Shown: positions 44,606 to 60,518 of the stretch, piece after piece
Layout of the letters: every line of letters begins with the position of its first letter
Position numbering within the stretch: position 1 is the first letter of the stretch
Source: Gymnodinialimonas phycosphaerae
GTDB lineage: Bacteria; Pseudomonadota; Alphaproteobacteria; Rhodobacterales; Rhodobacteraceae
Direction of reading: 5' to 3'
Length of the DNA: 64,000 nt
NCBI RefSeq assembly: GCF_019195455.1
Contig: NZ_JAIMBW010000001.1
Coordinates: 806,001 to 870,000, forward strand
Position numbers and translations under genes: made by a program
Notes under the pieces: model-generated
The model's input: the letters and a program-made list of their open reading frames with translations, nothing else
Told to the model about the DNA's origin: nothing
Databases searched by the model: none

Positions 44606-45607
44606 ATGCAGCAAGATCGTCTGAAAAACCTGCTCAGCAGTGGGGCCATCTGGGGCTTCATCGTACTGGAACTGATCTTCTTCTCGATTGCGGGCGAATA
44701 CCTTTCGCTGTCTGAACGGGCCTTCATGGACCTCGACAACATGCTGTTGTTGCTGAAGCAATCCGCGCCCATCGGGATCATTGCGGTCGGCATGTGCGTG
44801 ATCATGATCAACGGCAACATCGACCTGTCGGTGGGGGCGATCTTCGCGCTTTGCGCCATCGTGATGCTGGATTCCATGTCTTGGCCGATGTTCGACGCCC
44901 TCGGCGATTGGGTGATCCCGGTCAGTGCCTGCCTCGCGCTTTTGACTGGGTGCGTTCTTGGGTTCATCAACGGGTTCATCGTTTGGAAAACCGGCGTGGA
45001 CGCCTTCATTGTCACCCTCGGCGCGATGCTCGGCTATCGCGGATTGGTGTTCATGTACAATGGTGAGCAGCCGACCTCGAACCTCAATTGGACCCTGGTG
45101 GACATGGCCGAGGCCGACATTCTGGGGGTAGAGACCCCGGCGATCATCTTTCTGGTCGTCGTCGTCGTCGTCTGGCTGATCATGAGCCGCACGGTCCATG
45201 GCCGAAACGCCTATGCCATCGGTGACAACCGCGAGGCTGCGGTAAATGCCGGCATTCGTGTGGGGCCGCACTTCGTGATGAACTTCGTCCTGATCGGGTT
45301 CCTGTCCGCGCTGTCCGCCGTCGCATTCTATTCCGCCAGCGGGTCGGTCAACCCGAACGACGGCATGTTGTTCGAGCTTTGGGCCATCACGGCGGTTGTT
45401 CTGGGCGGTACAAAGCTGACGGGGGGCAAGGGCTCGGTGATCGGGACCTTCGGCGGTGTCATCGCCATTCAGCTGCTGCGCAAGGGTCTTGGCCATATCG
45501 GCGCGGACAGTGAAACCGTGAACCTCGTGATCGGGTGCATCCTGATCGCCGTCCTGTTCCTGGATCGTCAACTCAATCGCAAATCCACTGGGGAGTTGAA
45601 GGTATGA
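44606..45607 (+). CDS. Sugar ABC transporter permease (RbsC-like), second
   Basis: The 333-residue protein is a second BPD_transp_2 permease: MCVIMINGNIDLSVGAIFAL, GVDAFIVTLGAMLGYRGLVF, SRTVHGRNAYAIGDNREAAV and WAITAVVLGGTKLTGGKGSV. The RbsC type usually works as a homodimer or heterodimer; two distinct genes point to a heterodimer. AAGGGAGG precedes the ATG, and its TGA overlaps the ATPase start (ATGA). Confidence 0.93.
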   Translation: MQQDRLKNLLSSGAIWGFIVLELIFFSIAGEYLSLSERAFMDLDNMLLLLKQSAPIGIIAVGMCVIMINGNIDLSVGAIFALCAIVMLDSMSWPMFDALGDWVIPVSACLALLTGCVLGFINGFIVWKTGVDAFIVTLGAMLGYRGLVFMYNGEQPTSNLNWTLVDMAEADILGVETPAIIFLVVVVVVWLIMSRTVHGRNAYAIGDNREAAVNAGIRVGPHFVMNFVLIGFLSALSAVAFYSASGSVNPNDGMLFELWAITAVVLGGTKLTGGKGSVIGTFGGVIAIQLLRKGLGHIGADSETVNLVIGCILIAVLFLDRQLNRKSTGELKV

Positions 45608-47112
45608 CCGATCAGACACCCGCCCTGCGTCTTGAGGGCATCGTAAAGACGTTCCCCGGAGTGCGGGCCCTTGATGGCGTCAGCTTCTCGGTTCTGCCGG
45701 GCGAAGTTCACGCCCTGATGGGCGAGAACGGGGCCGGCAAATCAACCCTGATGAAGGTTCTGGGCGGGATCTATCAGCCCGACGAAGGCCGCATATTCAT
45801 CGCCGAGCGTGAAACCGTGATGAACAATCCGCTGGAGGCCAAGGCCAACGGCGTGATGTTCATTCACCAGGAACTCAGCCTCGCAGAGGAGCTTTCGGTG
45901 GCCGAGAACATCTATCTTGGCGAGCTGCCCCTCAGGCGTTTCGGGGTTGTGGATTGGGCGACGCTTTATGCGCGCACCGACGCAATCCTTGAAAAACTGA
46001 AGGTCGGTTTCAACGCCCGCACCGTGGTGGGGAGTTTGTCGATTGCCAATCAACAGATGGTCGAAATCGCGCGCGCGCTGACGGTGGATGCCAAGGCCGT
46101 GATTTTCGATGAACCGACGGCGTCCTTGACCGACTCCGAGAAGGTCGTGCTGTTCGACGTCATCGCAGACCTGCAAGCACAGGGGGTGGGGATCATCTAT
46201 ATCTCTCACCGGATGGAAGAGATCTTCAAGATCACCGACAGGATCTCGGTCCTGCGCGACGGTGAGTATCGCGGCACCCTGGCCACGGCCGAGACGAACG
46301 AGGATGAAGTCACCCAACTGATGATCGGCCGTTCCCTCGACCTGAGCCGCAACACCGCGCCGGTTGAACTTGGGCCTGTGGCGCTTCGCGTCGAAGGTCT
46401 GTCCTGCGGGAGCCTGTTCAACGACGCCACCTTCGAAGTGCGCGAAGGGGAGGTGCTTGGGTTCTACGGTCTGGTCGGGGCAGGCCGCACCGAGATTGCG
46501 GAAACCCTGTTTGGTCTGCGCACGCCAACCTCTGGCCGTATCATGCTCAAAGGTGAGGAGGTCACGATCACGTCGCCCATCGATGCAATCGCCAAAGGCA
46601 TTTCGCTTGTCCCCGAAAGCCGCAAGGAACAGGGGTTGGTTCTGGGCATGAATTGCCGCGATAACATGACGCTGCCGCAGGTCAGTGACCTTCGGGCAGG
46701 ACCTTTCGTGGCGGAAGGGGCGGAAATCTCGATCTACGATCAATACCGCGACCGGTTGCAAATCAAGGCGCCAAGCTGGCGCACGACGGTGGGCAACCTC
46801 TCCGGCGGGAACCAACAGAAGATCGTGATCGGCAAGTGGCTGTCGATGCGGCCGGAGGTTCTGATCGTGGATGAGCCGACACGCGGCATCGACGTGGGTT
46901 CAAAATCCGAGATCCACAACCTGCTGCGGGATCTGGCGGCGCAAGGCTATGCGGTGATCGTCATCTCGTCTGAGATGCCCGAGGTACTTCACGTCTCTGA
47001 CCGGATCGTGGCGATGTATAATGGCCGCATCATGCGTGAATTCAGCGCGGCGGAGGTGACGGAAGATAACCTGATCCAAGCCATCTCGGGCATCGCCAAC
47101 GAGGCTGCGTGA
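45604..47112 (+). CDS. Sugar ABC transporter ATP-binding protein (RbsA-like)
   Basis: The 502-residue protein has two ABC domains in tandem. The first has a canonical Walker A (GENGAGKST) and an SLSIANQQMVEIARAL signature region. The second has the degenerate Walker A typical of RbsA (GLVGAGRTE) and a canonical LSGGNQQK signature, then LIVDEPTRGIDVGSKSEIH. It energises the two permeases. Start and stop overlap the neighbouring genes (ATGA and TGATG), so the operon is translationally coupled. Confidence 0.94.
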   Translation: MTDQTPALRLEGIVKTFPGVRALDGVSFSVLPGEVHALMGENGAGKSTLMKVLGGIYQPDEGRIFIAERETVMNNPLEAKANGVMFIHQELSLAEELSVAENIYLGELPLRRFGVVDWATLYARTDAILEKLKVGFNARTVVGSLSIANQQMVEIARALTVDAKAVIFDEPTASLTDSEKVVLFDVIADLQAQGVGIIYISHRMEEIFKITDRISVLRDGEYRGTLATAETNEDEVTQLMIGRSLDLSRNTAPVELGPVALRVEGLSCGSLFNDATFEVREGEVLGFYGLVGAGRTEIAETLFGLRTPTSGRIMLKGEEVTITSPIDAIAKGISLVPESRKEQGLVLGMNCRDNMTLPQVSDLRAGPFVAEGAEISIYDQYRDRLQIKAPSWRTTVGNLSGGNQQKIVIGKWLSMRPEVLIVDEPTRGIDVGSKSEIHNLLRDLAAQGYAVIVISSEMPEVLHVSDRIVAMYNGRIMREFSAAEVTEDNLIQAISGIANEAA

Positions 47113-47981
47113 TGCGCGTGGGGTTTGCTGGCCTGGGCCGGATGGGCCGTGAGATGGCGGCCAACCTTGCCAGTGCGGGATACGACATGGTTCTGTGGAA
47201 CCGCAGCCGTGACCGGGCGCAGGACGCGGCGAGGGATGTCGGCGCGCGCATCGCCGCAACCCCACGAGAGCTTGCAGAGACCACCGAGATCGTCGTCACC
47301 ATGCTGGCCGATGATCCCGCGTCCGCGCAGGTTCACTTTGGCGCCGACGGCCTGTTTGCCGCCACCGGCGCACGCTTGTTTGTCGAAATGGGCACGATGA
47401 GCCCAGACCATATCGCGGATCTCAACGCCCGTGCGCCGGAGGGGGCCGTCGTTATCGATGCCCCGGTGTCGGGTGCCACGCAAGCGGCGCGGGACGCGCA
47501 ATTGCTGATCATGGCGGGCTGCGATGCGGCCACGGGGGCCGACGTGAGACCGCTGTTTGATGCCATGGGCCGCAACACCGTCTACCTTGGTCGCCCTGGC
47601 GCGGGCGCGGTGATGAAGCTTGGCGTCAACATGTTGATCCACGGGCTCAACCAGACCCTGGCCGAGGCGCTGGCCCTGACCCAGGCTGCAGGGATCCCGC
47701 GCGAGGCGGCGTTTGGCGTGATTGAGCAAAGCGCCGCCGCCGCGCCGATGTTGTCGTACCGCAAACCCCTCTACCTCGATGATATGTCCGGTGATGTCAG
47801 TTTCACCGTTGCGCTGGCACAAAAGGATATGGCGGTGACATGCGCCCTGGCGCGGCAGCTTGGGGTCGAAATCCCGCAATCCCAGATCACCCGCGCGCTT
47901 CTGGACGATGCTGCGGCGGCGGGGTTTGCGGACCGCGACATGGCCGCGATCGTGGCCTACATGCAGGAGAAAACCAAATGA
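47112..47981 (+). CDS. NAD(P)-dependent 3-hydroxyisobutyrate dehydrogenase-like enzyme
   Basis: The 289-residue protein starts VGFAGLGRMGREMAANL (GxGxMG Rossmann motif). It has VIDAPVSGATQAARDAQLLI and the catalytic Lys/Asn in GAVMKLGVNMLI. The family oxidises beta-hydroxyacids (hydroxyisobutyrate, tartronate semialdehyde/glycerate) in the cytoplasm. In this locus it may handle a hydroxyacid formed from the imported sugar or polyol. The ATG shares a base with the ATPase stop, and its end overlaps the ThuA-like gene by 4 nt. Confidence 0.9.
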   Translation: MRVGFAGLGRMGREMAANLASAGYDMVLWNRSRDRAQDAARDVGARIAATPRELAETTEIVVTMLADDPASAQVHFGADGLFAATGARLFVEMGTMSPDHIADLNARAPEGAVVIDAPVSGATQAARDAQLLIMAGCDAATGADVRPLFDAMGRNTVYLGRPGAGAVMKLGVNMLIHGLNQTLAEALALTQAAGIPREAAFGVIEQSAAAAPMLSYRKPLYLDDMSGDVSFTVALAQKDMAVTCALARQLGVEIPQSQITRALLDDAAAAGFADRDMAAIVAYMQEKTK

Positions 47982-48688
47982 AAGCAGCGCTCTTTGCCGG
48001 TGGTTGGGAAGGCCACGACCCATCCGCCTTCGCCAATTGGTGCCGCGACCTGTTGATCGAAGACGGTTTCGAGGTGGACGTTTACGACACGCTGGATCCG
48101 CTGGCGGAGCCGGATGGTTTGGCGGATGTGGACCTGATCGTCCCGATATGGTCCTCGGCCCGGTCCGGTCACAGGGCCGAGTTCGGCAACATGACCAAGG
48201 CCCAGGAAGACGGACTCCTGAAGTTGATCGGAGAGGGGCGTGGCCTTGCGGGCTGGCATGGCCATATGGGCGATGCCTTCCGCGATCGCCCCACGTATCA
48301 TTTTCTGATCGGCGGGCAGTTCGTGGCCCATCCGCCCGGCTGGCCCGATAACCTTCAACCCCGCGAGGACTACATCGACTATGACGTCACGGTGACACGC
48401 CCCGCTGACCCGATCATGGAGGGGATCCGCAGCTTTCGCCTGACGTCCGAGCAATATTACATGCTGGTCGACCCCTCGAACGAAGTGCTGGCGACGACGA
48501 CCTTCTCGGGCGATCACCTTTGGTGGATCGAGGGCACGGTGATCCCCGTGGTCTGGAAGCGGCGTTGGGACAAGGGCCGGGTGTTCTATTGCTCCATCGG
48601 CCACGAATTGGACGATTTGCGCCACCCTCAGGTGACGACGATCCTGCGCCGGGGCATGGCATGGGCGGCGGCGGCGTCGCGGAACTAG
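47978..48688 (+). CDS. ThuA-like domain protein
   Basis: The 236-residue protein has the ThuA glutamine-amidotransferase-like fold: KAALFAGGWEGHDPSAFANW at the start, LIGEGRGLAGWHGHMGDAF in the middle, and PVVWKRRWDKGRVFYCSIGH near the end. ThuA proteins occur in sugar (trehalose and related) utilisation operons with ABC importers; their exact reaction is poorly defined. GGAG precedes the ATG. Its last four bases overlap the end of the convergent kinase/GTPase operon. Confidence 0.87.
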   Translation: MKAALFAGGWEGHDPSAFANWCRDLLIEDGFEVDVYDTLDPLAEPDGLADVDLIVPIWSSARSGHRAEFGNMTKAQEDGLLKLIGEGRGLAGWHGHMGDAFRDRPTYHFLIGGQFVAHPPGWPDNLQPREDYIDYDVTVTRPADPIMEGIRSFRLTSEQYYMLVDPSNEVLATTTFSGDHLWWIEGTVIPVVWKRRWDKGRVFYCSIGHELDDLRHPQVTTILRRGMAWAAAASRN

Positions 48689-49473
48689 GGGCGGTGCAGT
48701 TGGGATCTTAGCTCAGTCAACAGGTCCGACCCATGGTCGGTCTCGACCAGGACAAGGCCCACCTGATGCGCTGCATTTGCAATCAAAAGCTGGCGGGGAT
48801 TGGGACCGCCCCAATTGAGCGCGCAAACGCCGCCGGTCTGAAACTTGCAAGATCTGTCCGACGCCGCCGTCCCAGCAACGCCCAGAACCGGTTTTGCCAA
48901 ATCCACCATGGCAAGCACTTGCTCGTCCGATCCGTCGATCACGAAAATGTCCTCGGAGGTCAGGACACATGCCCCCAGGATTTTCGCTGGCGTCGTCGCG
49001 ACAAGCCCGGTCAAAACGGTTTCCAAATTGACCATCGCAGGGGGCCGGGGGTCGTGGTCGAGGCATTGCAGTATAAGGGCAGCCGACACGCCGGACGTTG
49101 CCGGAAATTCGATGGCCGGATCATCGATGAAGCGCTGTCGAATGATCGTTTTGCCGTCCAAAATGGCCCGGAGTTGCTGAGCAATCTCCGTTCCGTTTTC
49201 AGAGATGCAGCGGGTCGTGGGCGCCGCCACTCCGTGAATGTCCTTGGACGTCGCAGAAAACTGAAGAAGGCGTCGGTTTCGCGCATCCAAGGCGATTTCT
49301 GTCTTGTCGGACAGCGTGAATTGAAGGCGACATTCAAGCGACGTTCTGTCGATAGAGGTCGCAACCTGGCGCAACGCGTCGTCGGGATCTGATGGCATCA
49401 AGCGGGCGTTCAGGAGAGACCCCGTTTGCGCTGTCGCCAACAGCGTATCACGCACGGTTTGAACATGTGTCAT
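48685..49473 (-). CDS. Uncharacterised protein, possible Roadblock-like C-terminal domain
   Basis: This 262-residue soluble protein is the last gene of the kinase/GTPase operon; its ATG overlaps the preceding stop by 4 nt. The C-terminal ~100 residues (ILGACVLTSEDIFVIDGSDE, then QLLIANAAHQVGLVLVETD) alternate strands and helices in a way that resembles Roadblock/LC7 dimers, but I am not certain. The N-terminal part is unlike anything I recognise. In other bacteria Roadblock proteins are regulators of small GTPases, which would fit the two upstream GTPases. Confidence 0.7.
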   Translation of the reverse strand: MTHVQTVRDTLLATAQTGSLLNARLMPSDPDDALRQVATSIDRTSLECRLQFTLSDKTEIALDARNRRLLQFSATSKDIHGVAAPTTRCISENGTEIAQQLRAILDGKTIIRQRFIDDPAIEFPATSGVSAALILQCLDHDPRPPAMVNLETVLTGLVATTPAKILGACVLTSEDIFVIDGSDEQVLAMVDLAKPVLGVAGTAASDRSCKFQTGGVCALNWGGPNPRQLLIANAAHQVGLVLVETDHGSDLLTELRSQLHRP

Positions 49474-49865
49474 TGCGCAACGTCCATTGCCGCCGGGGAT
49501 GACATGAACTCGGTCATGGCAAGAAGAAGATCATTGGGGTCAAGCCCGGGCCCGGACGTGCAGACCAAGGCGTGCGTTGCCTGCGTTTTGTCACGCAAGA
49601 ACAGGCTGTTGCCCGTGGGTTCCACGAAAACCGCGCTGTCGGGCGCTGTTTCAGGTGCCCCGCCGAGGACGCAGGAGGCAATGCTGCCCAACGCGTCAAG
49701 ACCCTCTTGTGGGTGGCGAAGGTCACTATCGACAAAGAGGACGAGGCGCGCCTCGATATCCGTCCAAAGCGCCAGGACGCAGTCGGGATGATGTGAGCGG
49801 AACGCGGACAATCCTTCGCGCGTGATGGCGGTGGCGTCGGACTTCATTTGGGTGTTGGCGCTCAT
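49470..49865 (-). CDS. Small Roadblock/LC7-like protein
   Basis: The 131-residue protein reads as one compact alpha/beta domain: CVLALWTDIEARLVLFVDSD, LDALGSIASCVLGG, AVFVEPTGNSLFLRDKTQAT and ALVCTSGPGLDPNDLLLAM. This order resembles Roadblock/LC7 (MglB-type) domains; the assignment is by pattern only. AGGA precedes ATG 49865, which overlaps the GTPase stop as ATGA. It may be the activator or partner of the small GTPase encoded just before it. Confidence 0.7.
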   Translation of the reverse strand: MSANTQMKSDATAITREGLSAFRSHHPDCVLALWTDIEARLVLFVDSDLRHPQEGLDALGSIASCVLGGAPETAPDSAVFVEPTGNSLFLRDKTQATHALVCTSGPGLDPNDLLLAMTEFMSSPAAMDVAQ

Positions 49866-50701
49866 GTCGTGGTTTCCTGTGGCTTTGGCCGCCTTACGAT
49901 GCGCAGCCTCGGTGGCAAAGGTTGAGCCGAGACGCGGCGCGGAATGATCTTGGGACCTTCCTTTTCCGGAGCCGATGGAGGGGGCGCCGTTTGGGGCAAA
50001 GATGCGCAGCTTTGAACAGGGGATCGGCTCATGGCACCGGCAAGCGTGCGCAGTACGGCTCCCATCCCCGATGCCTCGCATTGATCGATGGGTTTGCTGA
50101 CCTCCAGCAACGAGACCGGTAATACCGCGCGGAACAGGCCCCTTGTTTCCCGCTCGACGCGGTCGAGGATCCGCCGCCGGTCGGTGGCACCTGTGACCTT
50201 GTCCATCCGAGTCACCACCAACACGCTGCGAGCGCGCAAGGTGTCGGGCACCATGTCCCAGATCGCAGCCTCGGACTGGCGCCACGCTTGGGTGGCCGGT
50301 GTGCACCAGACCGCGATATCCGCCAAGGGCAACAGGGCGTCCCAGATATCCGGCGACATGTTGGGATCTGCACTTCCTGGCATGTCGATGATCGTGAAGT
50401 GTTCAAGGAATGCGGCCTGAACCGGCATCCGCACGGCGCATGTGTCTTGCAGATCGATCTTATCCATCCCAGCGGCGTCAAGCTCTGTCTCAGAGCCGTC
50501 GGTACCAATCCGCACGGGCGCGCCGGTACCGGACACGTACCAAATGGGGGGGGCCTGTGTGGCGGTCACACGAACGGTTGATTGATCGGCACCTAACAAC
50601 ACATTCGCCAAGGTGCTTTTGCCGGCGCTGAATTCGCCAAGCAAAGCGATGGTGGGGCGCTTGCCGGTTTGCGGGTCACTGTCGGTCTTGACGAGGGTCA
50701 T
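49862..50701 (-). CDS. Dynamin-superfamily/Era-like small GTPase
   Basis: The 279-residue protein has complete GTPase motifs: G1 GEFSAGKST (residues 22-30), a switch-I region, G3 DMPG and G4 TRMD. The GEFSAGKS form is typical of dynamin-like and SrfC-type bacterial GTPases. After the G domain comes a Pro/Arg-rich tail (PPPSAPEKEGPKIIPRR). No membrane segment is present. It overlaps both neighbours by 4 nt. It is a sequence relative of the GTPase-like protein at 52772 (shared WCTPA motif). Confidence 0.85.
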   Translation of the reverse strand: MTLVKTDSDPQTGKRPTIALLGEFSAGKSTLANVLLGADQSTVRVTATQAPPIWYVSGTGAPVRIGTDGSETELDAAGMDKIDLQDTCAVRMPVQAAFLEHFTIIDMPGSADPNMSPDIWDALLPLADIAVWCTPATQAWRQSEAAIWDMVPDTLRARSVLVVTRMDKVTGATDRRRILDRVERETRGLFRAVLPVSLLEVSKPIDQCEASGMGAVLRTLAGAMSRSPVQSCASLPQTAPPPSAPEKEGPKIIPRRVSAQPLPPRLRIVRRPKPQETTT

Positions 50702-52770
50702 CTATGGGCCTTCCCGGACTCTGTGCGGCCGAAATCCATCAAGATCGACCGGGCTTCGTTCAACGACGCGTTCCTTTGGTCGAATGCGTCGTCTTGCTGA
50801 TGTCTGACGTCCGCCAGGTCGGCCTGCGATCTCTGGGCCAAACTCAAGAAGACATTGCGTTGCCCGACGATGAACTCTTCCAGTTCGGACGTGAGGGCTT
50901 GGCTGAACGATGTCGCCAGCTCTGCCTTGATCGTTTCGACCATCGGTGCAATTTCCGCGTCGACCAGCGCGCGAAACTCTTCTCCATATGCCGCGTAGCT
51001 GCGCTTGCGACGCCACCATCTGGTCCACCAGCCCCCTTTGATATCAAGGGCAATGGTCTGCCCCAAAGTGACCGGCACGCCCGGCATGGGAAGCGGCGGA
51101 GACTCCAGGTCAAAGCCGACCTGCGAAAGGGCGAAATTCTCTAGAAACAGGTTCTTCAGTTTAAGTGAGCATCCCAAATATTGCTCTTCACCACTGCGCG
51201 ACGCTTTGGCCGAGAACACCTGATAGCCGGATCGAAGAAGAAGCCGCAGCCCTGTCGGATCGTAGGTCCAGACAACATCTTCGCCGTGGGCTTCCAGATG
51301 TTCGATCAAAGAGACGACAGCGCGCGACACAAAGGAGTGCCGTGATTTTTCCAGCCGCGCATCCAGCGCCACCAGCAGGTCATCAAGCTCTTGTGTGAGG
51401 CTGGAAATTGTCGTGGCGGCAATCGCATCAATGGCACGGCTCAATTCGGCCGCATCCACCGGCGTGCAAGGCCCTTCGAATATCCGCCGATCCGACATGG
51501 CGCGCGAGGCGGAAATTGCATTGGCAACGTTCCGCGCCCCGGTCGCGATTGCCTCGATGCTTTGCGCGCCTTCGCCCGAGACGATGCGCTCGGCCACCGC
51601 GCGGCCAAGATCCGGAAGACCCGACAGGCTCCAGACGAGCGCAACAGGGTCCTTTGGAAGGCTCTTCCGGGTCGCTTCGAACCTGGCAAGTTTTATCATT
51701 GCTTCGGCACTGGCCGGATCCATGGCGCCGATTTTCCCGGATAATGCGTGACTGGCCCAATGGGCGCTGCCAAAGATGATCTCGATGTTTGCGGAAATGC
51801 CCTGACCCGACAGCGTTTTCAGGATGGACGCTCGGATCTCCGGGATTTCTTCGGGCGGATTTGCCAGCTCATCCACCCGGTTCACGAAAATGATCACGTC
51901 ACGGGTTGGGATGTTGGCGACCAACCGGATCAGGGCCAGATCAACGGTGGAGAGCGCTTGGCTGGCGGACAGGACCACAACGCAAAGCCTGCTCCCACGG
52001 ATGGCATTCACCGTGATCTGTTCTCGCACCATGAACGTGTCATTCACACCCGGCGTGTCGCGCAGACACAACTTCAACGGCAGTGCGGGTTTGCTGACAA
52101 ATAGATCTGCCGACTTCGTGATATCGGCGAAGCGGCCTTGGGTCTTGTCGGCATTGGTATCGAGATCAAACTCGTCGCCAAGGCAGACATACCGTTGGAT
52201 CAGCTCTTCATCGATATAGCGGTATTCATGGGTTTGCCCCAGCAGTTGCTCGAAACTGGCCCCAAGGCGCGCGCGGGATTTCTGTCGCATGTCGTTCAAT
52301 TGCTGGCGCACTTTTTCCAGCTCTTTATCCGCACCCGCTCGGCTTGCAAGCTCGCCCACACGCCCGCCGGTGTTCAGCAGGTTGCGCCATTCTTCTTCCG
52401 CAAAGAACCGAAAACATGCGTGCTGATTGGCCGGCGCGAGTGTGGGTGACAAATGCAGGGACGTCACCACGGAGGTCCACGGATTGACGTCAGCAGGCAG
52501 CAGATTGCCCATCCCAGTCACCGCGTTGACGAGCGATGTCTTACCCGCTTTGACCTGCCCAATGAACGTGACCGACGGTTCGAAATCCCGAAGTTGGCCG
52601 TGCAGTTTCTGGATTGCCCCTAGATTGGCGTCGTCCCCGGCTTCTTGCAGGTTTTGCAACGCCACATCGAGGTTGCGCAGATCGCTGACCAGCGGATCAA
52701 GCCCGTGGAACAGGTCTTTTTCGAGAGACGGCCCGCTGACGGGCGGCGAGATTTTGCGGTCGTGGTGCAT
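50698..52770 (-). CDS. Dynamin-like GTPase
   Basis: The 690-residue protein has an N-terminal helical segment and then a dynamin-type G domain: G1 GQVKAGKTS (residues 71-79), G3 DTPGVND and G4 NRVDEL. Long helical stalk-like regions follow. Near residues 590-610 the segment GGWWTRWWRRKRSYAAYG is rich in Trp and Arg and could insert into membrane. Bacterial dynamins remodel membranes or protect them under stress. ATG 52770 follows the stop of the previous gene by 1 nt. The upstream longer frame would overlap that gene. Confidence 0.85.
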   Translation of the reverse strand: MHHDRKISPPVSGPSLEKDLFHGLDPLVSDLRNLDVALQNLQEAGDDANLGAIQKLHGQLRDFEPSVTFIGQVKAGKTSLVNAVTGMGNLLPADVNPWTSVVTSLHLSPTLAPANQHACFRFFAEEEWRNLLNTGGRVGELASRAGADKELEKVRQQLNDMRQKSRARLGASFEQLLGQTHEYRYIDEELIQRYVCLGDEFDLDTNADKTQGRFADITKSADLFVSKPALPLKLCLRDTPGVNDTFMVREQITVNAIRGSRLCVVVLSASQALSTVDLALIRLVANIPTRDVIIFVNRVDELANPPEEIPEIRASILKTLSGQGISANIEIIFGSAHWASHALSGKIGAMDPASAEAMIKLARFEATRKSLPKDPVALVWSLSGLPDLGRAVAERIVSGEGAQSIEAIATGARNVANAISASRAMSDRRIFEGPCTPVDAAELSRAIDAIAATTISSLTQELDDLLVALDARLEKSRHSFVSRAVVSLIEHLEAHGEDVVWTYDPTGLRLLLRSGYQVFSAKASRSGEEQYLGCSLKLKNLFLENFALSQVGFDLESPPLPMPGVPVTLGQTIALDIKGGWWTRWWRRKRSYAAYGEEFRALVDAEIAPMVETIKAELATSFSQALTSELEEFIVGQRNVFLSLAQRSQADLADVRHQQDDAFDQRNASLNEARSILMDFGRTESGKAHR

Positions 52771-52771
52771 T

Positions 52772-53908
52772 TCAGACGGTCTCCCAACCCAAGGCTTTCT
52801 CAAACGCCACGCGCAACTGGAACAACAGGGCTGCGGTGTCCTGGGCCTGCTCAGCCTGGCCTTCTATTTCAAGCAGGATAATCATGTCGCCGATGTCTTC
52901 GATTGTTGATTTCAGGGTTTGAGCGGACGCGACGTCCTCTGGCCAATTCGCGGCGCGGTGGCGCAGCCCCTCAACGGTCTCGCTGCAGTGCGACAGAACC
53001 CGCGCGACCCAATCCTCAGGTTCCAAGCCAGGCGAAAGCAGCTCGGCCAGTTCACCCGTGCGCGCGATGAGAAAGAGCAATGGCTCGGACAGCGTGGGGC
53101 GCAGATCATGGGCGGGCGCGTGCGGGGTGACTTGCGTATCGTCGCCCGCCTGCTCCCGGTCCTTGGGCGCAAAGTGCCCTAATCGGTGCAAGATCAACTG
53201 CGCCATGTCCAGATCCGCAACGCGCGCGTCTTCGATGTCGGCGATCAAGCGGTTCGTCAGGGGCGTGAGGTCCAATGCCTCCGGATGTGGCAATGAGAAT
53301 ATTTCAGCGAAATGCGCGATCTCGGAATGCTTTGGCACAGCATTATTCGGGCGGGTCTCAAGCAAGTATGCATGTTGCGTCAGGCGCTCTGGGGCCAGGT
53401 TCAAGGCTTGGGCATCTGCATGGTTGAAGGCTGGTGTGCACCAGACAGTGATTTCGCTGCGTCGTGAGGCCCAGGATAACGCGGGCCGCTGCATCGCCGG
53501 GTCGTCTTGTAGCACCAGAACTAGCAAGGACATTAACCTCAGGCGATCCTCAGGCAGGAAGATCTGCAGAAAGACCGGGTCACGCTGCAGGATTTCGTCG
53601 CTCGGCCAGCCCGGCGCCTCAAGGGTCGTGCCGTCTTCCAGGGTCACTTTTGACATCAGCTTCTGTCCAAAGTGCAACTCCACCGCGGGCAGCAGGCCCC
53701 CACAAAACAAGTTCTCGGCCCCGATGAAGCCCTGGGCAACCCGCGCAATATCGCCCGTGGCAAACCCCAAGAGGCAGACCCGGGCAGGTCGTCTGAGCGT
53801 ATCGGCAAGGCGGCAGCATTGGTCCGCCTCTCGCGCTGGCAACTTGGCCGACGCGATAAGGGCATCAAGCTTTGTAACCGCATCGTGGGGCGCGAACTCC
53901 AGCATCAT
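52772..53908 (-). CDS. GTPase-like protein lacking the P-loop lysine
   Basis: The 378-residue protein aligns by eye with the 49862 GTPase. VCLLGFATGDIARVAQGFIG occupies the place of ALLGEFSAGKSTLANVLLG, and EITVWCTPAFNHADAQAL that of IAVWCTPATQAWRQSEAA. The P-loop GKS is replaced by GDI, and the G4 position reads TRPN instead of TRMD, so nucleotide binding is probably lost. It may be a non-catalytic partner or scaffold for the two active GTPases. It overlaps the phosphatase stop by 4 nt. Confidence 0.75.
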   Translation of the reverse strand: MMLEFAPHDAVTKLDALIASAKLPAREADQCCRLADTLRRPARVCLLGFATGDIARVAQGFIGAENLFCGGLLPAVELHFGQKLMSKVTLEDGTTLEAPGWPSDEILQRDPVFLQIFLPEDRLRLMSLLVLVLQDDPAMQRPALSWASRRSEITVWCTPAFNHADAQALNLAPERLTQHAYLLETRPNNAVPKHSEIAHFAEIFSLPHPEALDLTPLTNRLIADIEDARVADLDMAQLILHRLGHFAPKDREQAGDDTQVTPHAPAHDLRPTLSEPLLFLIARTGELAELLSPGLEPEDWVARVLSHCSETVEGLRHRAANWPEDVASAQTLKSTIEDIGDMIILLEIEGQAEQAQDTAALLFQLRVAFEKALGWETV

Positions 53909-54792
53909 TCCCTCCGCGTAGTGACGTAAGCGGGCGGCGGTACAGCGCGACGGAAGGCCCTGCGGATTGCATCAGATGTTGTGCGAAATCGGTTCGGCCT
54001 GGAGCGCACGGCACAGGCCTTGGCTTGAACGACCACGATTGCGGTGTTGTCTTGCTCGGGATCATTCAGCGTGGCCAAGGCATCCAACAGATCCAAGGCA
54101 ATGTCTGCACTCTTTTCGCTGCGCGCGCGCAGCAAAAGGGCTTCGATAATCGGATCAGGCAAGAACTGTAGCCCGTCGCTTGCGAGAATGACGATATCGT
54201 CCGGTTTCAACGACACGGGAATATCCGGGCAATCCACAGCGGCGATCTTTTCGCCCATCAGGGCCGATGTCAGGCAGTTGCGTTGCGGATGATGTGCGGC
54301 CTGTTCGGCCGTGAGCATCCCCTGCGCCAGCATCAGGTCAATTTCTGGCGCCATCGAGTGATCTTCATTCAATCGTGTCAGCGTCTCGTCGCGGAACAGG
54401 TAAAGCACTGAATCGCCCACCGAAATCCAGTGCAGTTTGTCGTTTGCGGCCACGACGGCAACCACGGTGCCGCCCATACCACGGCGTGTCGGGTGCCCCT
54501 CTACGCTTGACGTCAAGGCGGCATTGGCCTTGGTGATCGCGCCCCCCAAAAGGCCGGGAAGGTGGGCTGCATCTTCCAGATCACCAAGCGTGAGGCCCGA
54601 GAAGATCTCGGCCACGATCGTGCGGCTTGCCAGGTCTCCGGAGGCATGCCCGCCCATCCCGTCAGAGAGAACGGCAAAACCCTGACGCGCCTTTTCGGGG
54701 AAGGCGACCGCCACCGCGTCTTCTTGTCGGGTGCGCGCGCCCATCGCCAGGGCCGAGGACACATCAAATTCGATCTGCTGACGCTCATTCAT
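53905..54792 (-). CDS. PP2C-type Ser/Thr protein phosphatase
   Basis: The 295-residue protein has PP2C motifs: RQED (22-25), the metal-binding SDGMGGHASGD, MGGTVVAVV, WISVGDSVLYLFR, ILASDGLQF and EQDNTAIVVV. It should remove phosphate from Ser/Thr with Mg/Mn in the cytoplasm and oppose the kinase of the same operon. ATG 54792 overlaps the FHA gene end by 8 nt; the upstream frame to 54882 has no start-site support. Confidence 0.92.
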   Translation of the reverse strand: MNERQQIEFDVSSALAMGARTRQEDAVAVAFPEKARQGFAVLSDGMGGHASGDLASRTIVAEIFSGLTLGDLEDAAHLPGLLGGAITKANAALTSSVEGHPTRRGMGGTVVAVVAANDKLHWISVGDSVLYLFRDETLTRLNEDHSMAPEIDLMLAQGMLTAEQAAHHPQRNCLTSALMGEKIAAVDCPDIPVSLKPDDIVILASDGLQFLPDPIIEALLLRARSEKSADIALDLLDALATLNDPEQDNTAIVVVQAKACAVRSRPNRFRTTSDAIRRAFRRAVPPPAYVTTRRE

Positions 54793-55585
54793 CGGGGCGA
54801 CCTGCCTTCGGTGCGGTGGTTGCGCCTGACCACGTGAAGTCGTCGCCGCAAAAGGCGTGAAACCGTAGCGATGTCTTGCCAATCCTGATCGTGTCGTTGT
54901 GTGTCAGTTCTTCCGTCATCAGCACGGGTGTATCGTTGCGACGCACTACATTGGCCTTGTTGCCTTGTCCTAGAAAGAACCGGTTCTGCTCATCGTCGTA
55001 CACGACCGAAGCGTGGCCCTCGCGAGAGATGCTTTCGTCGCCAAAATCCAGTGACACGTCCTGGTCTGGTGCCCGGCCGATCGAGGAAACGCGTGTTGTG
55101 ACCGCGAAAAACGCGCCGCGCCCCGGACCATCGACGACGACCAGAAAGCCAGCCGGGAATTGCGGACCCTCATGGGCGGCTTTCTTGTCATCGAACAACC
55201 CCGCGTCGGGCTCTTGGGCGTGGAATCCAAGCATGCGTGTCTTGGCGCGACCCGGTCCGGGCGTGTCCGGCGCAATGGGATTCGATAGTACAAGCGGCGG
55301 CGTAGGTTCGTCGCGCGCCACGCTCGCGGGCCGCGGCGCGGGGATCGGCGCTGGCGTGGCTTCTGGCGTCGGCTCTGGCTGGGACGCGCGTGCGACTTCA
55401 TCCGCTTCCAGATCCCAGATCTGCCGACGGCTTGTTCGGACGACTTCCTCGGCCCTTGGCCGTTGTGGCTGCACGGCCCCCGCTCTTGCGTGGGGATCTT
55501 CGGAAGGGTGTGCGTGTTCCGCAGGAGACTGATGCGAAAGAGGTCGCATCCGGACAGCAACATTGCGTAGGCGATTCATGCTCAT
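54785..55585 (-). CDS. FHA domain protein
   Basis: The 266-residue protein has a disordered, Pro/Ala/Glu-rich N-terminal half and a C-terminal FHA domain (SSIGRAPDQDVSLDFGDESI, then SREGHASVVYD; the GR and SxxH residues contact phosphothreonine). FHA domains read Thr phosphorylation, so it probably binds the operon kinase or its substrates. Its ATG overlaps the kinase stop (ATGA). Confidence 0.9.
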   Translation of the reverse strand: MSMNRLRNVAVRMRPLSHQSPAEHAHPSEDPHARAGAVQPQRPRAEEVVRTSRRQIWDLEADEVARASQPEPTPEATPAPIPAPRPASVARDEPTPPLVLSNPIAPDTPGPGRAKTRMLGFHAQEPDAGLFDDKKAAHEGPQFPAGFLVVVDGPGRGAFFAVTTRVSSIGRAPDQDVSLDFGDESISREGHASVVYDDEQNRFFLGQGNKANVVRRNDTPVLMTEELTHNDTIRIGKTSLRFHAFCGDDFTWSGATTAPKAGRPDE

Positions 55586-56982
55586 ACTTTTTCCTCTGTC
55601 GGATCATGGCTGCCGTCCGGTTTGGAGGCTAATGATGACATCCGCCCCAACCGCGCAAACAGATCGGGCAGGATGGTTCCCTTGGGTTTTTCGACTGCCG
55701 TCTCTTCCGGGGGGGCGGGTTTGGCGTATTTCAAACGAATGCGGTCAATCGGCAAAAGCGCCGGTTCCGCGTCCGCGGCCGCTTTGCGTCGCGGTCGCGC
55801 GGGCCGGTTCGGCCTGACAGGGACGACGGGACCGTCGTCCTGGGACGCTGGTGTCTTGATGGGATCCTCGTCGAGTTCTGGTTCGATCGGGTCAAGGGCA
55901 GGCGCTGGAACGACACGGGCGCGCGTGGCCTCTGGCGCCTTGGCCTTGGGGGTAGCGGCGCCTTTCGCTTCCGGCTTTACGGGCTGGAAGTCCTTGAAGA
56001 AGTCTTTCACAAGCTGGGTGATCGTTTTGTCGAGGTGCTCATCCTGCTCGGCCAATTGCATCAACTTCTTCTTGCGCAATTCTGCGTTGATCGCCTCGTG
56101 CCACGCATCGGCGGTTTGCAGGCGATCTTTCGGGAACAGGCTAAGGCACGCGTTGATCGCCCCCACGAAGGCAGCATCATACCCGTCGATGCGCCCCAGT
56201 GGCTTGAGCGGATCCGGGGCCTCGCGCGCGGCTGCCGCCATACGCGAATGGCTGCTGGTCGGCGCAGTTCCTGACAGGACATGATGGAACGTCGCGGCCA
56301 AGGCATAAAGGTCGCTGGCGTAGACTTGGTCGCTGCCAGCAAGGTAGAACTCTTGCGGTGAGTAGCCATCCTTGACGGTCAGGACCTTTGACAAGGCGCG
56401 GCTGACGCGCGAGGCATCTTCGCGGGCCGCCCCGAAATCAATAAGAACGGGCAAGTTGTCATCGTCGATCAGAATGTTGTCGGGCGAAATATCACGATGC
56501 AGGATATCGCTACGGTGAATGAAGCTTACAGCTTGCAAAAGCTGGATGAGAAGGGCTTTCACCATGTCCGGCGTTAGGCGGGCGGGGTCGCGTTCGATGA
56601 TATCGAGAAGCGTCTGCCCCTCAACGAAGTCCATCGCCATATAGGCCGTGTCATTGTCGCGAAAGTACTGGTGAACGCCCACAATATAGGGGTGTTGAAG
56701 GCCTGCGAGCGCGCGGGCTTCCTTTTCGAACAGCTCCAGGATGGTTTCGAATTCGACCGTACTGGTTTGAGAGCGCACGCGCACCGTTTTCTGGCTTCGG
56801 AAACACAGCGCGCTTGGAAAGCATTCCTTGATGACAACACGTCGGCCAAGGCTGTCGCGCGCCAGATAGGTGACACCAAAGCCGCCAGCGTTGAGATATC
56901 TCTCTATCGAATACTGCCCTCCGCATAGGACTGACCCGGGCGGCAGTTCATCTCCTTGAATGTCTGCACCGTCGATAGCCAT
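55582..56982 (-). CDS. Ser/Thr protein kinase (Hanks type, soluble)
   Basis: The 466-residue protein has a complete kinase domain: glycine loop NAGGFGVTY (31-39), lysine in VVIKE (K52), catalytic HRDISPDN (162-169), DFG in IDFGAARE (182-184) and an activation segment DGYSPQEFY. The C-terminal ~170 residues are Pro/Ala/Lys-rich, apparently disordered, without a membrane helix. Thus it is a cytoplasmic PknB-like kinase. It heads an eight-gene coupled operon. ATG 56982 has GGAAG just upstream; the frame open to 57120 adds an unsupported N-terminus. Confidence 0.92.
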   Translation of the reverse strand: MAIDGADIQGDELPPGSVLCGGQYSIERYLNAGGFGVTYLARDSLGRRVVIKECFPSALCFRSQKTVRVRSQTSTVEFETILELFEKEARALAGLQHPYIVGVHQYFRDNDTAYMAMDFVEGQTLLDIIERDPARLTPDMVKALLIQLLQAVSFIHRSDILHRDISPDNILIDDDNLPVLIDFGAAREDASRVSRALSKVLTVKDGYSPQEFYLAGSDQVYASDLYALAATFHHVLSGTAPTSSHSRMAAAAREAPDPLKPLGRIDGYDAAFVGAINACLSLFPKDRLQTADAWHEAINAELRKKKLMQLAEQDEHLDKTITQLVKDFFKDFQPVKPEAKGAATPKAKAPEATRARVVPAPALDPIEPELDEDPIKTPASQDDGPVVPVRPNRPARPRRKAAADAEPALLPIDRIRLKYAKPAPPEETAVEKPKGTILPDLFARLGRMSSLASKPDGSHDPTEEKV

Positions 56983-57102
56983 TCTCTTCCGCTGACCCTC
57001 TAGTTGTTCTGTTCCAGGGAACAGGTTTGAACGGAATTGGGCGCCCGCTCGTCGGAGTGGGCATGCGCCGATCTTCCCAACATCAAGGGTCTCTCGGGAA
57101 TG

Positions 57103-57995
57103 AGGCGGGAACTTGTTCAAATGCTGAGACAGGAGGGCCGTTTAGATCCAAAACGTCGCAAATTTATCTTGTGCAGACAGACAACGCCGTCGCGCACGGA
57201 GGTCGCCTACGTTTTGTCCTCGTCCGAGGCAGGAACGCCTGTAGGAGATCTGCAAAACAGTGTTGATCGACACACCAATGGTGAATTGTCTTTGGAATGG
57301 GCGACGGTGCGCCTTATTGCCGATGACCCGCTAAAAGGGCAGGGGATCGCGACACTTGATCAACTGATGATCACGCAGGTGGGGGAGACACTCGGCAGTG
57401 TCGAAAACAGGCTGGATCTGGTGTCTGCTTACTTCGTGCCCGGAGTGCAGGGAACCACGTACCTGACAGACCTGTCAGAACGAGGCATCGATGGTCGCAT
57501 TCTGACGCATGCGTAGAACACCACCGATGTCCTTTTGGTCCATGCTGAATACACCAGGTATCGGCGGGAACTGCTGGAAGCGGGCATATCGCTCCATGAA
57601 TTGAGACCGCGCGGCGACATGGCGCCTGGGTCTGATTTGCAGATTCTGCCATTCGGTTTGTCAGGTGCCAGTCTGCGCGCAAAAACTTTCGCAATCGACG
57701 GGACGCGCATATTTATCGGATCTTTCAATTTTGACCCGCGTTCGGCCATGCTTAACTGTGAAATGGGATTTTGATCGATGGCCCGTCTCTCGTGTCGGAG
57801 ATGAGCGAGCGCTTTGACAGGCACCTCGATTTTGTCAGTTACCGGCCACGACTGACGCCTGAAGGAAAAATGGTCTGGCTCGAACTTCTCGAGGACGGCA
57901 ACTCGGTGATCTATCAAGAGGAACCCGGCGCAAGCTGGTTTCAACAGGTCGCCATCATCTTGATAGGGATGCTTCCGGTGGAGTGGTTGCTATGA
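57103..57995 (+). pseudogene. Decayed phospholipase D / cardiolipin synthase-like gene
   Basis: Three pieces read as the C-terminal two thirds of a ClsC-like PLD protein. Piece one includes VRLIADDPLKGQGIATLDQL, then DLVSAYFVPGVQG, and stops at TAG 57514-57516. The same frame resumes with TDVLLVHAEYTRYRRELLEA and SLRAKTFAIDGTRIFIGSFN up to TGA 57772-57774. A -1 shift then gives LIDGPSLVSEMSERFDRHL to LPVEWLL at 57995. The second HKD motif reads LRAKTF (His to Arg), and the first HKD half is missing. It is clearly inactive. Confidence 0.8.
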
Positions 57996-58532
57996 CGCTA
58001 AAGCGGTTCATACCACGAGCCGAGTTGACCGAGAGCTTCGACGCTCAAAAGCATCCATTGTGGGCACCACGGCTTCCGGTGTCGGCTTGAAGGGGACCTT
58101 GGACGAGGATCTGGCCATTCCTCCCAAGTTCGCCGTTGCTTTTGATTAGTGTTGCCGGGCGTAAACATGTTGCGGAAAGCATCACGCCATGTTGTCGATG
58201 TGTCCGGAAGAACAGCCCACACGAATACCTTGGAGGCATTTTGAGCGCTGCTCGTTCTCCAGACCTGGTTGGGAAATCATGGTTTTGACTGGCGCGTTTC
58301 CGTTTGGATGCTGAATTAACGCCCATCAACGAGTCACGAAGCGAGCATTCATTGCCGCGATGCTTAGGAAACTCCGACCCACATCAGCACCAACGATGGA
58401 TTGGCTTGGTTCGTTTTATTTCAATGAGTTAAATGGCGTCGTGTGCATTATATGTGCAACACAAAATAGCCTTCTGGCGCGCTCTGTCGGGTACTTGTCG
58501 ACCCATTGCAAATCCACAGGGTGCGTCCGAAA
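57996..58532. other. Intergenic stretch, no gene recognised
   Basis: About 540 bp between the phospholipase D remnant and the betaine permease stop. Codon use is irregular, short frames on both strands resemble nothing I know, and the base composition is visibly more A/T-rich near 58400-58480. It may be further gene decay or an old insertion junction. Confidence 0.4.
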
Positions 58533-60518
58533 TTACGCCTCCAGACCCAACTGCTGCTTCCGCAGCGATGCCCATTTCATGATGATCAGGTCGAAGCTGA
58601 GCGCCATGAGAGAGACGCAGATACCGAGGACGAAGTTGGTGCCAAGGTTGGTGCCCGCAAGCGTCCGCTGAAGCTCTTGCCCAAGGTCTTGCGTGCCGAT
58701 GAAGGCGGCAATGATGACCATGAAGAACGCGAACATGATGGCTTGGTTGAAGCCTACGGCCATGGTCGGGAAGGCGAGGGGTATCTGCACTGTCAGCAAC
58801 TTCTGCATCCGCGTGGCCCCTGACATATCGGCCGCCTCGGTGATTTCCAGCGGCACCGTCCGCAGCCCTTCGATCGTGTAGCGCACAAGCGGAACCGTCG
58901 AGAAGATCAGGATGGAGAATATGACGGCGATGTCGGTGATTCCGAAAAGCATGATCGCGGGCAAAAGGTAGACGAAGCTCGGGAACGTCTGCGCTGTGTC
59001 GCAGGCTAGGAGCACTCGCTTGGCAGATCGCTCGTTGCGGGCGGCGAGAACTGCAATCGGCAGACCGATCAGCGCGGCCAGAATGACGGCGGCCAGCACA
59101 GAGTAAAGTGTGATTACGGCGCGGTCCCACCAACCCGATAGGGCGACTAGAGAGAAAAACAGGCCCGCCAGCATCGCCTGCCTGCGCCCTGCGAGCGCGA
59201 ACCCGAAGGCCATGACCATCAGGATCAGGGCAGGTGTGGGCAACGACAGAAGGAAGTTGCGGAACGGGATGAAGACCATGGTGTTGAAGAACACCCGCAT
59301 GCCCCCGGTAATCGCGCGCACCCAATCGAGCGCCAGGAAGGTGCGCATGATGCCATCAATCTCGCGACCCATCGACAGGCTTTGGCGGCGGCCGATCTCG
59401 GACAAATAGGGGATGAACTGGGCGAGGATGTAGAAGAAGACGAATACCCCAAGCCCGATCAGCGCAAACCGGTGTTGTTTCCACCATGGCGTGCCTTTCT
59501 CGAAATGCTCGGGCTGCTTGGCAACCCACGCCTTCGACATCCGGTCCAGAGCGACGGCGAGCAATACGATCGTTATTCCGATCTCGAATGAGCGGCCAAG
59601 GCGGAAGCTACCCATCATCTCCAGCAGCTTCGCGCCAAGGCCGGGCATGCCGATGAAAGCGGTCAGAACGACCATGGCCAGACACAGCATGATAACCTGG
59701 TTCACGCCCACCAATATCTCGGTTCGGGCGGACGGGATGTAGACGTGGCGCAGCATCTGGAACCGGGAACATCCGCTCATCTTGCCGGCCTCTACCACTT
59801 CGGGAGACACCTTCTGGAGGCCCAGAATAGTCATCAGGATCATCGGCGGAATGGCATAGACTACAGTCGCAACGGCGCCTGCCGTGGGGCCGACTTTGAA
59901 GAAGATCACTGCCGGAAGCAGGTAGGTGAAGAAAGGCAGGGTTTGCAACACGGCGAGGATCGGTTTGATCGTCCGCTCGAATGCGGGATATTTCCACGCG
60001 ATAATGCCAAGCGACAGGCCGATGACGAAGGCCATGGGGGCCGCGACGACCAGCACCGACATGGTCTGCATCGCCAATTCCCACTGACCAATCAATGCTG
60101 TCCATAGGAACGTGCCGCCTGCCAGAACGGACATGCGCCACCCTCCCAGCCAATATCCCAGAACGGTGACCGCGGCGGCAATGGCGGCCCATGGAATGGG
60201 TCCAAGGTAGGGCCAGCGACGGCGCCCGAACAGAAGGTTGCCGGTCACATCCAGAATCCATTCCAAGCCCTCGGTCAGGAACCGGGTCAGGGTCAGAAGG
60301 CCAAGGTCGTCCTTGATGAAGTTGAAGATGATGTCGAGCCAATCGGCGAATGGCGGAATGGCGGTTTCAGGTAGTCGGTGCAGTACCGCCGGTAGGACGC
60401 CTGCATATTGCGCAATGGTCAGTGCAATGGCGGCGGCCACGCAGATCAACGCGGCCTTCTGTCTGCCGAGGCCTCCAAATGCCGTCGGTTTGGAGAGCGT
60501 ATGTTCCGCAGCACTCAT
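58533..60518 (-). CDS. proW: Betaine-type ABC transporter permease with two fused permease domains (ProW-like)
   Basis: The 661-residue protein contains two BPD_transp_1 domains: one with AGKMSGCSRFQMLRHVYIPS, the second with EAADMSGATRMQKLLTVQIP (both EAA loops). There are about twelve to fourteen helices. Single-domain ProW proteins are half this length, so this is a tandem fusion forming both halves of the channel. It probably imports glycine betaine or a related methylated amine. Its start overlaps the ATPase stop by 4 nt. Confidence 0.9.
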   Translation of the reverse strand: MSAAEHTLSKPTAFGGLGRQKAALICVAAAIALTIAQYAGVLPAVLHRLPETAIPPFADWLDIIFNFIKDDLGLLTLTRFLTEGLEWILDVTGNLLFGRRRWPYLGPIPWAAIAAAVTVLGYWLGGWRMSVLAGGTFLWTALIGQWELAMQTMSVLVVAAPMAFVIGLSLGIIAWKYPAFERTIKPILAVLQTLPFFTYLLPAVIFFKVGPTAGAVATVVYAIPPMILMTILGLQKVSPEVVEAGKMSGCSRFQMLRHVYIPSARTEILVGVNQVIMLCLAMVVLTAFIGMPGLGAKLLEMMGSFRLGRSFEIGITIVLLAVALDRMSKAWVAKQPEHFEKGTPWWKQHRFALIGLGVFVFFYILAQFIPYLSEIGRRQSLSMGREIDGIMRTFLALDWVRAITGGMRVFFNTMVFIPFRNFLLSLPTPALILMVMAFGFALAGRRQAMLAGLFFSLVALSGWWDRAVITLYSVLAAVILAALIGLPIAVLAARNERSAKRVLLACDTAQTFPSFVYLLPAIMLFGITDIAVIFSILIFSTVPLVRYTIEGLRTVPLEITEAADMSGATRMQKLLTVQIPLAFPTMAVGFNQAIMFAFFMVIIAAFIGTQDLGQELQRTLAGTNLGTNFVLGICVSLMALSFDLIIMKWASLRKQQLGLEA

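What the first reader, a model, noticed from the sequence alone, without database searches (positions are those of the whole stretch)
48685..56982. Eight-gene coupled operon joining Ser/Thr phosphorylation to dynamin-like GTPases
Seen: kinase, FHA reader, PP2C, GTPase-like protein, dynamin-like GTPase, small GTPase and two further soluble proteins in one strand, with 4-nt overlaps at five of seven junctions, an 8-nt overlap at one and a 1-nt gap at the other. Known: kinase-FHA-phosphatase triads control type VI secretion, and Roadblock proteins regulate small GTPases. Inference: here phosphorylation switches a membrane-remodelling GTPase module. No secretion genes lie nearby. It may be a membrane-stress or defence system.
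Basis: partly seen in the sequence, partly recalled or inferred. Interest (0 to 1): 0.85.

Follow-up and report, generated by a model that had tools for sequence, protein, structure and literature searches.

The report
Phosphorylation-controlled dynamin-like operon in Rhodobacteraceae
Bacteria of one largely marine family carry a conserved eight-gene operon that places a protein kinase, its reader and its phosphatase next to membrane-remodelling-type GTPases and two regulator-like proteins, suggesting that such membrane machines may be switched by phosphorylation.

Summary
The operon is real and correctly described. Eight genes on the minus strand (48685-56982) encode a Ser/Thr kinase, FHA protein, PP2C phosphatase, degenerate GTPase, dynamin-like DynA, a second dynamin-family GTPase DynB, and two proteins with predicted Roadblock folds. 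The junctions are as stated.

It is conserved. In one genome per genus of the same family, P8 occurs in 65 of 295. Of 60 such loci read, 31 have exactly this order. A permuted form in Ruegeria and relatives has two GTPase pairs.

P7 and the C-terminal half of P8 are predicted Roadblock folds. The "GTPase-like" protein is related to a second-pair GTPase but has lost its nucleotide-binding motifs. Where the kinase has a predicted transmembrane segment, the locus usually also encodes probably exported binding proteins with OmpA- or LysM-like parts.

A type VI secretion role is not supported: the own genome has no VipB, and 44 of 65 genomes with P8 have none. Nothing found supports a defence island. 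Best reading: a stand-alone, phosphorylation-gated dynamin-pair machine at the cell envelope. Parts and conservation are shown; the mechanism is inferred.

The parts
55582..56982 (-). K: Hanks-type Ser/Thr kinase, 466 aa; HRD and DFG motifs present, no predicted transmembrane segment
   Evidence: start ATG 56982 preceded by GGAAGAGA (by eye)
54785..55585 (-). FHA-domain protein, 266 aa, FHA at residues 168-236, proline-rich N-terminal part
   Evidence: far below the type VI TagH cut-off
53905..54792 (-). PP2C-type Ser/Thr phosphatase, 295 aa, DGMGG motif present
   Evidence: (Stp1-like 142.6 bits, below that model's cut-off of 230)
52772..53908 (-). G4: pseudo-GTPase, 378 aa, related to the GTPases DynB and DynB2
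53744..53767 (-). degenerate P-loop of G4 (GFATGDIA)
50698..52770 (-). DynA: dynamin-like large GTPase, 690 aa; best match by sequence among solved structures 5owv chain A (E 1.3e-6)
52534..52560 (-). intact P-loop of DynA (GQVKAGKTS)
49862..50701 (-). DynB: dynamin-family GTPase, 279 aa; best match among solved structures 5owv chain C (27.3 bits), level with GTPase Era (27.2 bits)
50612..50638 (-). intact P-loop of DynB (GEFSAGKST)
49470..49865 (-). P7: predicted Roadblock/LC7-fold protein, 131 aa
   Evidence: AF2 pLDDT 89.4; Foldseek 3kye E 7e-6, M. xanthus MglB 6hjm E 3.4e-5
48685..49473 (-). P8: two-domain protein, 262 aa, found almost only in this family of bacteria
   Evidence: AF2 pLDDT 83.4; range
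48688..49029 (-). C-terminal domain of P8 (residues 149-262), predicted Roadblock fold

Best explanation
This is a stand-alone envelope-remodelling machine under Ser/Thr phosphorylation control. DynA and DynB form a dynamin-like pair that acts on membrane. G4, a relative of a second-pair GTPase that has lost nucleotide binding, is a fixed structural or regulatory subunit of that complex. P7 and P8 form Roadblock-type dimers that set the GTPase state or scaffold it. The kinase phosphorylates one or more of these proteins, the FHA protein reads the phosphate and recruits or releases the GTPases, and PP2C resets the switch. In some clades the kinase has a transmembrane segment and probably periplasmic binding proteins are co-encoded, so there the input is probably periplasmic; in the window the kinase looks soluble and its input is unknown. 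Shown: genes, order, conservation, predicted folds, motif loss, kinase topology correlation. Inferred: complex formation, phosphorylation targets, membrane action.
For: Order conserved in 31 of 60 loci of separate genera. All three GTPase motifs in 57 of 60 DynA1 and 58 of 60 DynB1, against 2 of 43 G4 and 14 of 16 DynB2. Unrooted tree: DynB1 one clade (0.998), G4 one clade (1.0), and a split (0.92) that puts G4 with 15 of 16 DynB2 apart from DynB1. DynA's best solved relatives are bacterial dynamin-like proteins (5owv, 2j68); 5OWV is the Cj-DLP1/2 pair. Predicted Roadblock folds. FHA motif in 42 of 42, PP2C DGMGG in 42 of 44, kinase HRD-type motif in 36 of 39. Transmembrane kinase with binding-protein partners: 5 of 8 against 1 of 34, Fisher p 4e-4; one of the three exceptions was resolved by reading on, and the one case against lies beside a second, transmembrane kinase.
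Against: No experiment links any of these proteins. No structure was predicted for DynA, DynB or G4, so stalk and membrane paddle are untested; DynB at 279 aa is little more than a GTPase domain, and its best PDB match is level with Era. P7 and P8 are not found as Roadblock by Pfam (2 of 30 P7 members at E <= 1, best 0.15), and Foldseek's Roadblock matches to P8 are weak. K was found in 42 of 60 loci; many loci end near the operon. One genome (G746) has P7-P8 unlinked from its dynamin genes. The envelope link rests on few clades: the MreBCD neighbourhood is one clade.
Confidence: 0.5

Rival explanations
1. It is a type VI secretion regulatory triad (PpkA-Fha-PppA type) that has kept extra GTPase genes.
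For: The same three domains in series; T6SS is common in the family, VipB in 71 of 295 genomes; a slight excess of overlap, 21 of 65 against 50 of 230, p 0.10.
Against: No VipB in the own genome; 44 of 65 genomes with P8 lack it; where a contig is shared (4 of 21 genomes) the distance is 69 to 338 kb. The FHA protein scores 13.6 against a cut-off of 120.25 for TagH.
Confidence: 0.03
2. It is an anti-phage defence system, with the dynamin-like pair acting on membranes during infection and the kinase triad as sensor.
For: Patchy presence (65 of 295 genera); plasmid copies in Leisingera and Ruegeria; a Bacillus dynamin-like protein gives phage resistance (PMC8844932, start of abstract in the listing); the kinase matches PD-T4-6 models at E 1.8e-45, as many Hanks-type kinases might (inference).
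Against: No recurrent defence neighbours: 114 flanking ORFs, no PADLOC family in more than two (mostly the P8 side, no control region). The other seven proteins have only weak or partial PADLOC matches: LeoA and LeoBC round the P-loop, PP2C to PDC-M21C at 26.5 bits. Binding proteins as partners do not suggest defence.
Confidence: 0.12
3. The GTPases are not membrane remodellers but a signalling or polarity switch, like MglA-MglB, with the Roadblock proteins as GAP and the dynamin-like fold used as a scaffold.
For: Two predicted Roadblock-fold proteins; DynB is nearly a bare GTPase domain; P7 relatives in another family lie beside Roadblock-like and small-GTPase-like genes (by eye).
Against: DynA is a 690-residue protein with Dynamin_N above cut-off and dynamin-like proteins as its nearest PDB relatives; no MglA or Ras family is listed for DynB.
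Confidence: 0.25
4. The eight genes are two neighbouring operons, a phospho-signalling triad and a GTPase group, kept together only by linkage.
For: A larger gap between G4 and DynA in 25 of 33 relatives; the two halves are permuted in type II loci and divergent in L181.
Against: The halves are found together in several different arrangements, and G4, a GTPase relative, sits in the triad's half with a 4-nt overlap to PP2C in 29 of 33.
Confidence: 0.1

Closest known systems
Campylobacter jejuni Cj-DLP1/Cj-DLP2 dynamin-like pair (PMC6104087, passages read; PDB 5OWV)
   Same: Two adjacent dynamin-family genes; DynA matches chain A best, DynB chain C best but level with Era. The paper says most bacterial dynamin-like genes are paired in operons and that the pair tethers liposomes.
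   Different: The word 'kinase' occurs 0 times in that paper; the passages name no Roadblock or pseudo-GTPase; DynB here is much shorter (279 aa against a 614-residue chain).
LeoA/LeoB/LeoC of E. coli H10407 (PMC4159319, passages read)
   Same: Split dynamin-like genes in one putative operon, linked there to vesicle release.
   Different: DynB scores 12.3 bits against a cut-off of 325 for the LeoA family and DynA is not listed for it; PADLOC LeoA matches are partial. 'kinase' occurs 0 times in that paper.
Myxococcus MglA-MglB and Streptomyces conservons (CvnB)
   Same: P7 and the C-terminal half of P8 are predicted to have the Roadblock fold seen in MglB and CvnB5.
   Different: The GTPases are dynamin-family, with no MglA/Ras family listed; no histidine kinase or DUF742 among the eight. 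The make-up of conservons is recalled.
PpkA-Fha-PppA triad of type VI secretion (recalled)
   Same: Kinase, FHA and PP2C in series.
   Different: No VipB in the own genome; FHA protein far below the TagH cut-off.
Rag GTPase-Ragulator (eukaryotes)
   Same: Roadblock-type domains beside a GTPase pair; Foldseek and VIA list these chains.
   Different: Only a shared fold; no sequence relation shown.

Membership tests
Bacterial dynamin-like protein pair | Two adjacent dynamin-family genes with Dynamin_N above cut-off | tested here: met
   DynA 46.6 and DynB 39.8 bits, cut-off 27; adjacent, 4-nt overlap
Bacterial dynamin-like protein pair | G1, G3 and G4 nucleotide motifs | tested here: met
   57 of 60 DynA1 and 58 of 60 DynB1 have all three
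Bacterial dynamin-like protein pair | Helical stalk and membrane paddle | not tested
Bacterial dynamin-like protein pair | Hetero-oligomer that binds lipid | not testable with these tools
   needs purified protein
Roadblock/LC7 | alpha-beta-beta-alpha-beta-beta-beta-alpha fold | tested here: met
   predicted models only: P7; P8 residues 149-262 (Foldseek weaker)
Roadblock/LC7 | Pfam Robl_LC7 match | tested here: not met
   2 of 30 P7 members at E <= 1, best 0.15; P8 no match at E <= 0.1
MglA-MglB or conservon | Ras-like MglA/CvnD GTPase partner | tested here: not met
   DynB best family Dynamin_N; small_GTP 19.5 bits against 42.5; no Ras or MglA family listed
Type VI secretion PpkA-Fha-PppA triad | Encoded in a genome with type VI secretion, near its genes | tested here: not met
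   VipB absent from own genome and from 44 of 65 genomes with P8; 69 kb or more apart in the 4 genomes where a contig is shared
Type VI secretion PpkA-Fha-PppA triad | FHA protein of the TagH family | tested here: not met
   13.6 bits, cut-off 120.25
LeoABC dynamins | Member of the LeoA family model of NCBIfam | tested here: not met
   DynB 12.3 bits against 325, DynA not listed; PADLOC matches partial
Anti-phage defence system | Defence-gene neighbourhood | tested here: inconclusive
   114 of 126 flanking ORFs scanned, mostly on the P8 side; no PADLOC family in more than two; no control region was scanned
Hanks-type kinase with PP2C phosphatase | Catalytic motifs present | tested here: met

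The most novel reading that the evidence does not exclude
Rhodobacteraceae have a previously undescribed class of phosphorylation-gated dynamin machine. A kinase-FHA-PP2C circuit controls a dynamin-like pair through Roadblock platforms. One arm of an ancestral two-pair machine decayed into a conserved pseudo-GTPase, and receptor-kinase versions sense the periplasm through binding proteins held at peptidoglycan. This would be a bacterial counterpart of eukaryotic phospho-control of dynamins.
Probability: 0.4. Interest if true: 0.82.

Novelty: new variant of a known kind. Interest (0 to 1): 0.66.

Why it matters
Bacterial dynamin-like pairs are known from structures, but to my knowledge little is known of what switches them on. 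An operon that is conserved over dozens of genera and carries its own kinase, phosphate reader and phosphatase would give a direct genetic handle on that question. The contrast between loci with two GTPase pairs and loci with one pair plus a pseudo-GTPase is also a natural experiment in how a pseudo-enzyme arises.

Tried and rejected
Type VI secretion was tested by co-occurrence and distance and not supported. A defence island was tested by PADLOC on the eight proteins and on 114 flanking ORFs and not supported. LeoA membership was rejected. A promoter and terminator scan of 48400-58600 found 1 and 8 sites against 2.5 and 11.0 in shuffles and told nothing.

The MreB-MreC neighbourhood directly downstream in seven genera looked like strong evidence for a cell-wall role, but the DynA tree puts all seven in one clade, so it counts once.

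P7 as a marker of the whole system failed: in 398 genomes of the phylum it occurs in 42, 7 of them in the own family; in the ten longer loci of other families that I read it stood without the other seven genes. P8 is the better marker: in 385 genomes of the class 4 matched, two of the own family strongly and two others weakly and in part.

Ten paper searches showed no title or abstract describing this gene combination; others returned no paper, one search listed 10 of 67 and one search listed 6 of 18,049. Subscription papers and preprints are not held.

Rows dropped and limits: 5 of the 65 P8-positive genomes were not read as long loci (own, G099, G810 weak, G884, G930). Of 126 flanking ORFs found, 5 were removed by length and 7 at locus edges by hand, leaving 114. 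Because the loci were centred on P8, in 44 of 60 an outermost operon gene lies within 1500 nt of the end of the DNA held, so the flank scans see mainly the P8 side. In one search the kinase of L163 was called transmembrane by hand, because its reading frame is cut by the locus edge. L159's two LysM-type proteins lie between its second, transmembrane kinase and a second PP2C gene. L198's segment is only 32 residues from the C-terminus. L179 has no partner in the DNA held. Some loci are the same genomes, so counts hold repeats. Export of the binding proteins rests on hydrophobic N-terminal stretches by a simple scan, clear for most but not for the two of L159. Both type II Pfam matches (SBP_bac_3 21.4 against 26.4, LysM 18 against 20.9) are below cut-off.
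Full report
What is there. Pfam gives a protein kinase, an FHA domain, a PP2C phosphatase and two dynamin-family GTPases, all above cut-off; the other three proteins match nothing. No NCBIfam match shown reaches its cut-off. In PADLOC, which has no cut-offs, the kinase matches PD-T4-6 and other kinase models strongly (best E 1.8e-45) and the rest weakly or not at all. The window is part of a 4.3-Mb, two-contig genome. Its P8 is 90 percent identical to one from Jannaschia sp. EhC01; the three named relatives among eleven are called hypothetical proteins.

Conservation. A DynA search of genome contigs kept 80 loci (of 86 found), whose titles are Rhodobacterales-type genera or unspecified Alphaproteobacteria. 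Profiles of the eight families show two main layouts: type I, as in the window, and type II (Ruegeria, Aliiroseovarius), DynA-DynB-P7-P8-DynA2-DynB2-K-FHA, with PP2C and two binding proteins behind in the annotated case. To avoid the bias towards Ruegeria I searched one genome per genus in the same family: P8 in 65 of 295. Sixty of those loci were read: K 42, FHA 44, PP2C 47, G4 45, DynA 55, DynB 54, P7 56, P8 60 (the bait); 31 of 60 have the exact order and nothing else, 33 of 60 contain the exact run. Several gaps are contig ends. In 385 genomes of the class P8 matched in 4: two of the own family, and two others only weakly and in part.

The pseudo-GTPase. In DynA and DynB the P-loop, DxPG and N/T-x-x-D-type motifs are present in nearly every relative; in G4 all three are present in 2 of 43. 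The window and its nearest relatives have lost even the P-loop lysine, while other clades keep it. In an unrooted FastTree of 312 columns G4 is one clade (support 1.0) and DynB of the first pair another (0.998). A split with support 0.92 puts G4 with 15 of 16 second-pair DynB2 proteins apart from DynB1. DynB2 itself is not a clade (at best 10 of 16, 0.80). DynB2 keeps all motifs in 14 of 16. The simplest reading is that type I loci lost DynA2 and turned DynB2 into a pseudo-GTPase; the root was not tested, so the direction is inference.

Kinase topology. Long kinases (over 600 residues) have a hydrophobic segment in 60 of 62 cases, short ones in 2 of 51 (repeats included). In the long ones listed, the segment is followed by 273 to 530 residues, with one exception of 32. 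In 42 genus-level loci with a kinase, a transmembrane kinase and a binding-protein partner go together: 5 both, 3 kinase only, 1 partner only, 33 neither, Fisher p 4e-4 (one kinase labelled by hand). Reading further showed two LysM-type binding proteins behind L181 as well. In L159, the one partner without a transmembrane kinase in that table, the partners lie between a second, 974-residue transmembrane kinase and a second PP2C gene. The partners are of two kinds. In a type I clade it is a PBP-like domain plus OmpA (both above cut-off) with a PilJ-domain protein. In type II and L159 it is a LysM-like and solute-binding type, called transporter substrate-binding by PLSDB, with Pfam matches below cut-off. 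These are few clades, but both kinds suggest a binding protein held at peptidoglycan. The window has the soluble-type kinase and no such partner gene was recognised beside it (by eye).

What it is not. VipB is absent from the own genome and present in 71 of 295; with P8 it overlaps in 21, Fisher p 0.10. In the 4 genomes where both share a contig they are 69 to 338 kb apart; in 17 they lie on different contigs and distance cannot be given. Flanking ORFs of type I loci, mostly on the P8 side, show no recurrent defence family. The recurrent neighbours are MreB/MreC, PilJ, LysR, PBP-like, response-regulator and OmpA families; the MreB and PBP-OmpA groups are each bound to one clade.

How it may work. 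DynA resembles a subunit of the Campylobacter dynamin-like pair (5OWV identified), which tethers liposomes in vitro (PMC6104087, passages); DynB's match to the other subunit is no better than to GTPase Era. LeoA and LeoB were linked to vesicle release (PMC4159319, passages). Roadblock proteins act as GTPase regulators or scaffolds (MglB, Ragulator; recalled). I therefore propose a phosphorylation-gated membrane-remodelling complex at the cell envelope. The gene set and its conservation are shown; every interaction is inferred. Ten full-text searches showed no description of this combination, within the limits of the open library and of the listings.

Noticed in passing
window 57037-57930, + strand: Remnant of what looks (by eye) like a phospholipase D or cardiolipin-synthase-type gene, divergent from the operon, with an internal stop and shortened ends. 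No Pfam match at E <= 0.001 for its first part.
   Followed up: partly
window 43613-48688 and 58533-62547: The operon lies between a sugar-type ABC transporter group and a glycine-betaine-type ABC transporter group (by eye), an ordinary metabolic setting.
   Followed up: no
L164, L168, L174, L182, L161, L162, L165 (downstream): MreB directly downstream on the same strand in seven genera, with MreC and, by eye, MreD, PBP2-like and RodA-like genes behind it in six; one clade on the DynA tree.
   Followed up: yes
L106, L108, L109, L208: P7 relatives lie next to an ABC-type ATPase gene (by eye), three times in other families and once in a P7-P8-ATPase-DynA-DynB row: perhaps another partner of P7.
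   Followed up: no
L110, L112: P7 relatives, in tandem in L110, beside Roadblock-like and small-GTPase-like genes in genomes of another family (by eye).
   Followed up: no
L184 and L211 (genome G746): P7-P8 with an OmpA-type binding protein and a PilJ protein stand apart from two DynA-DynB pairs elsewhere in the same one-contig genome: co-retention without linkage.
   Followed up: partly
L059, L073, L075, L085: Arrays of two or three DynA-DynB pairs in tandem, without a detected kinase in the stretch held.
   Followed up: no
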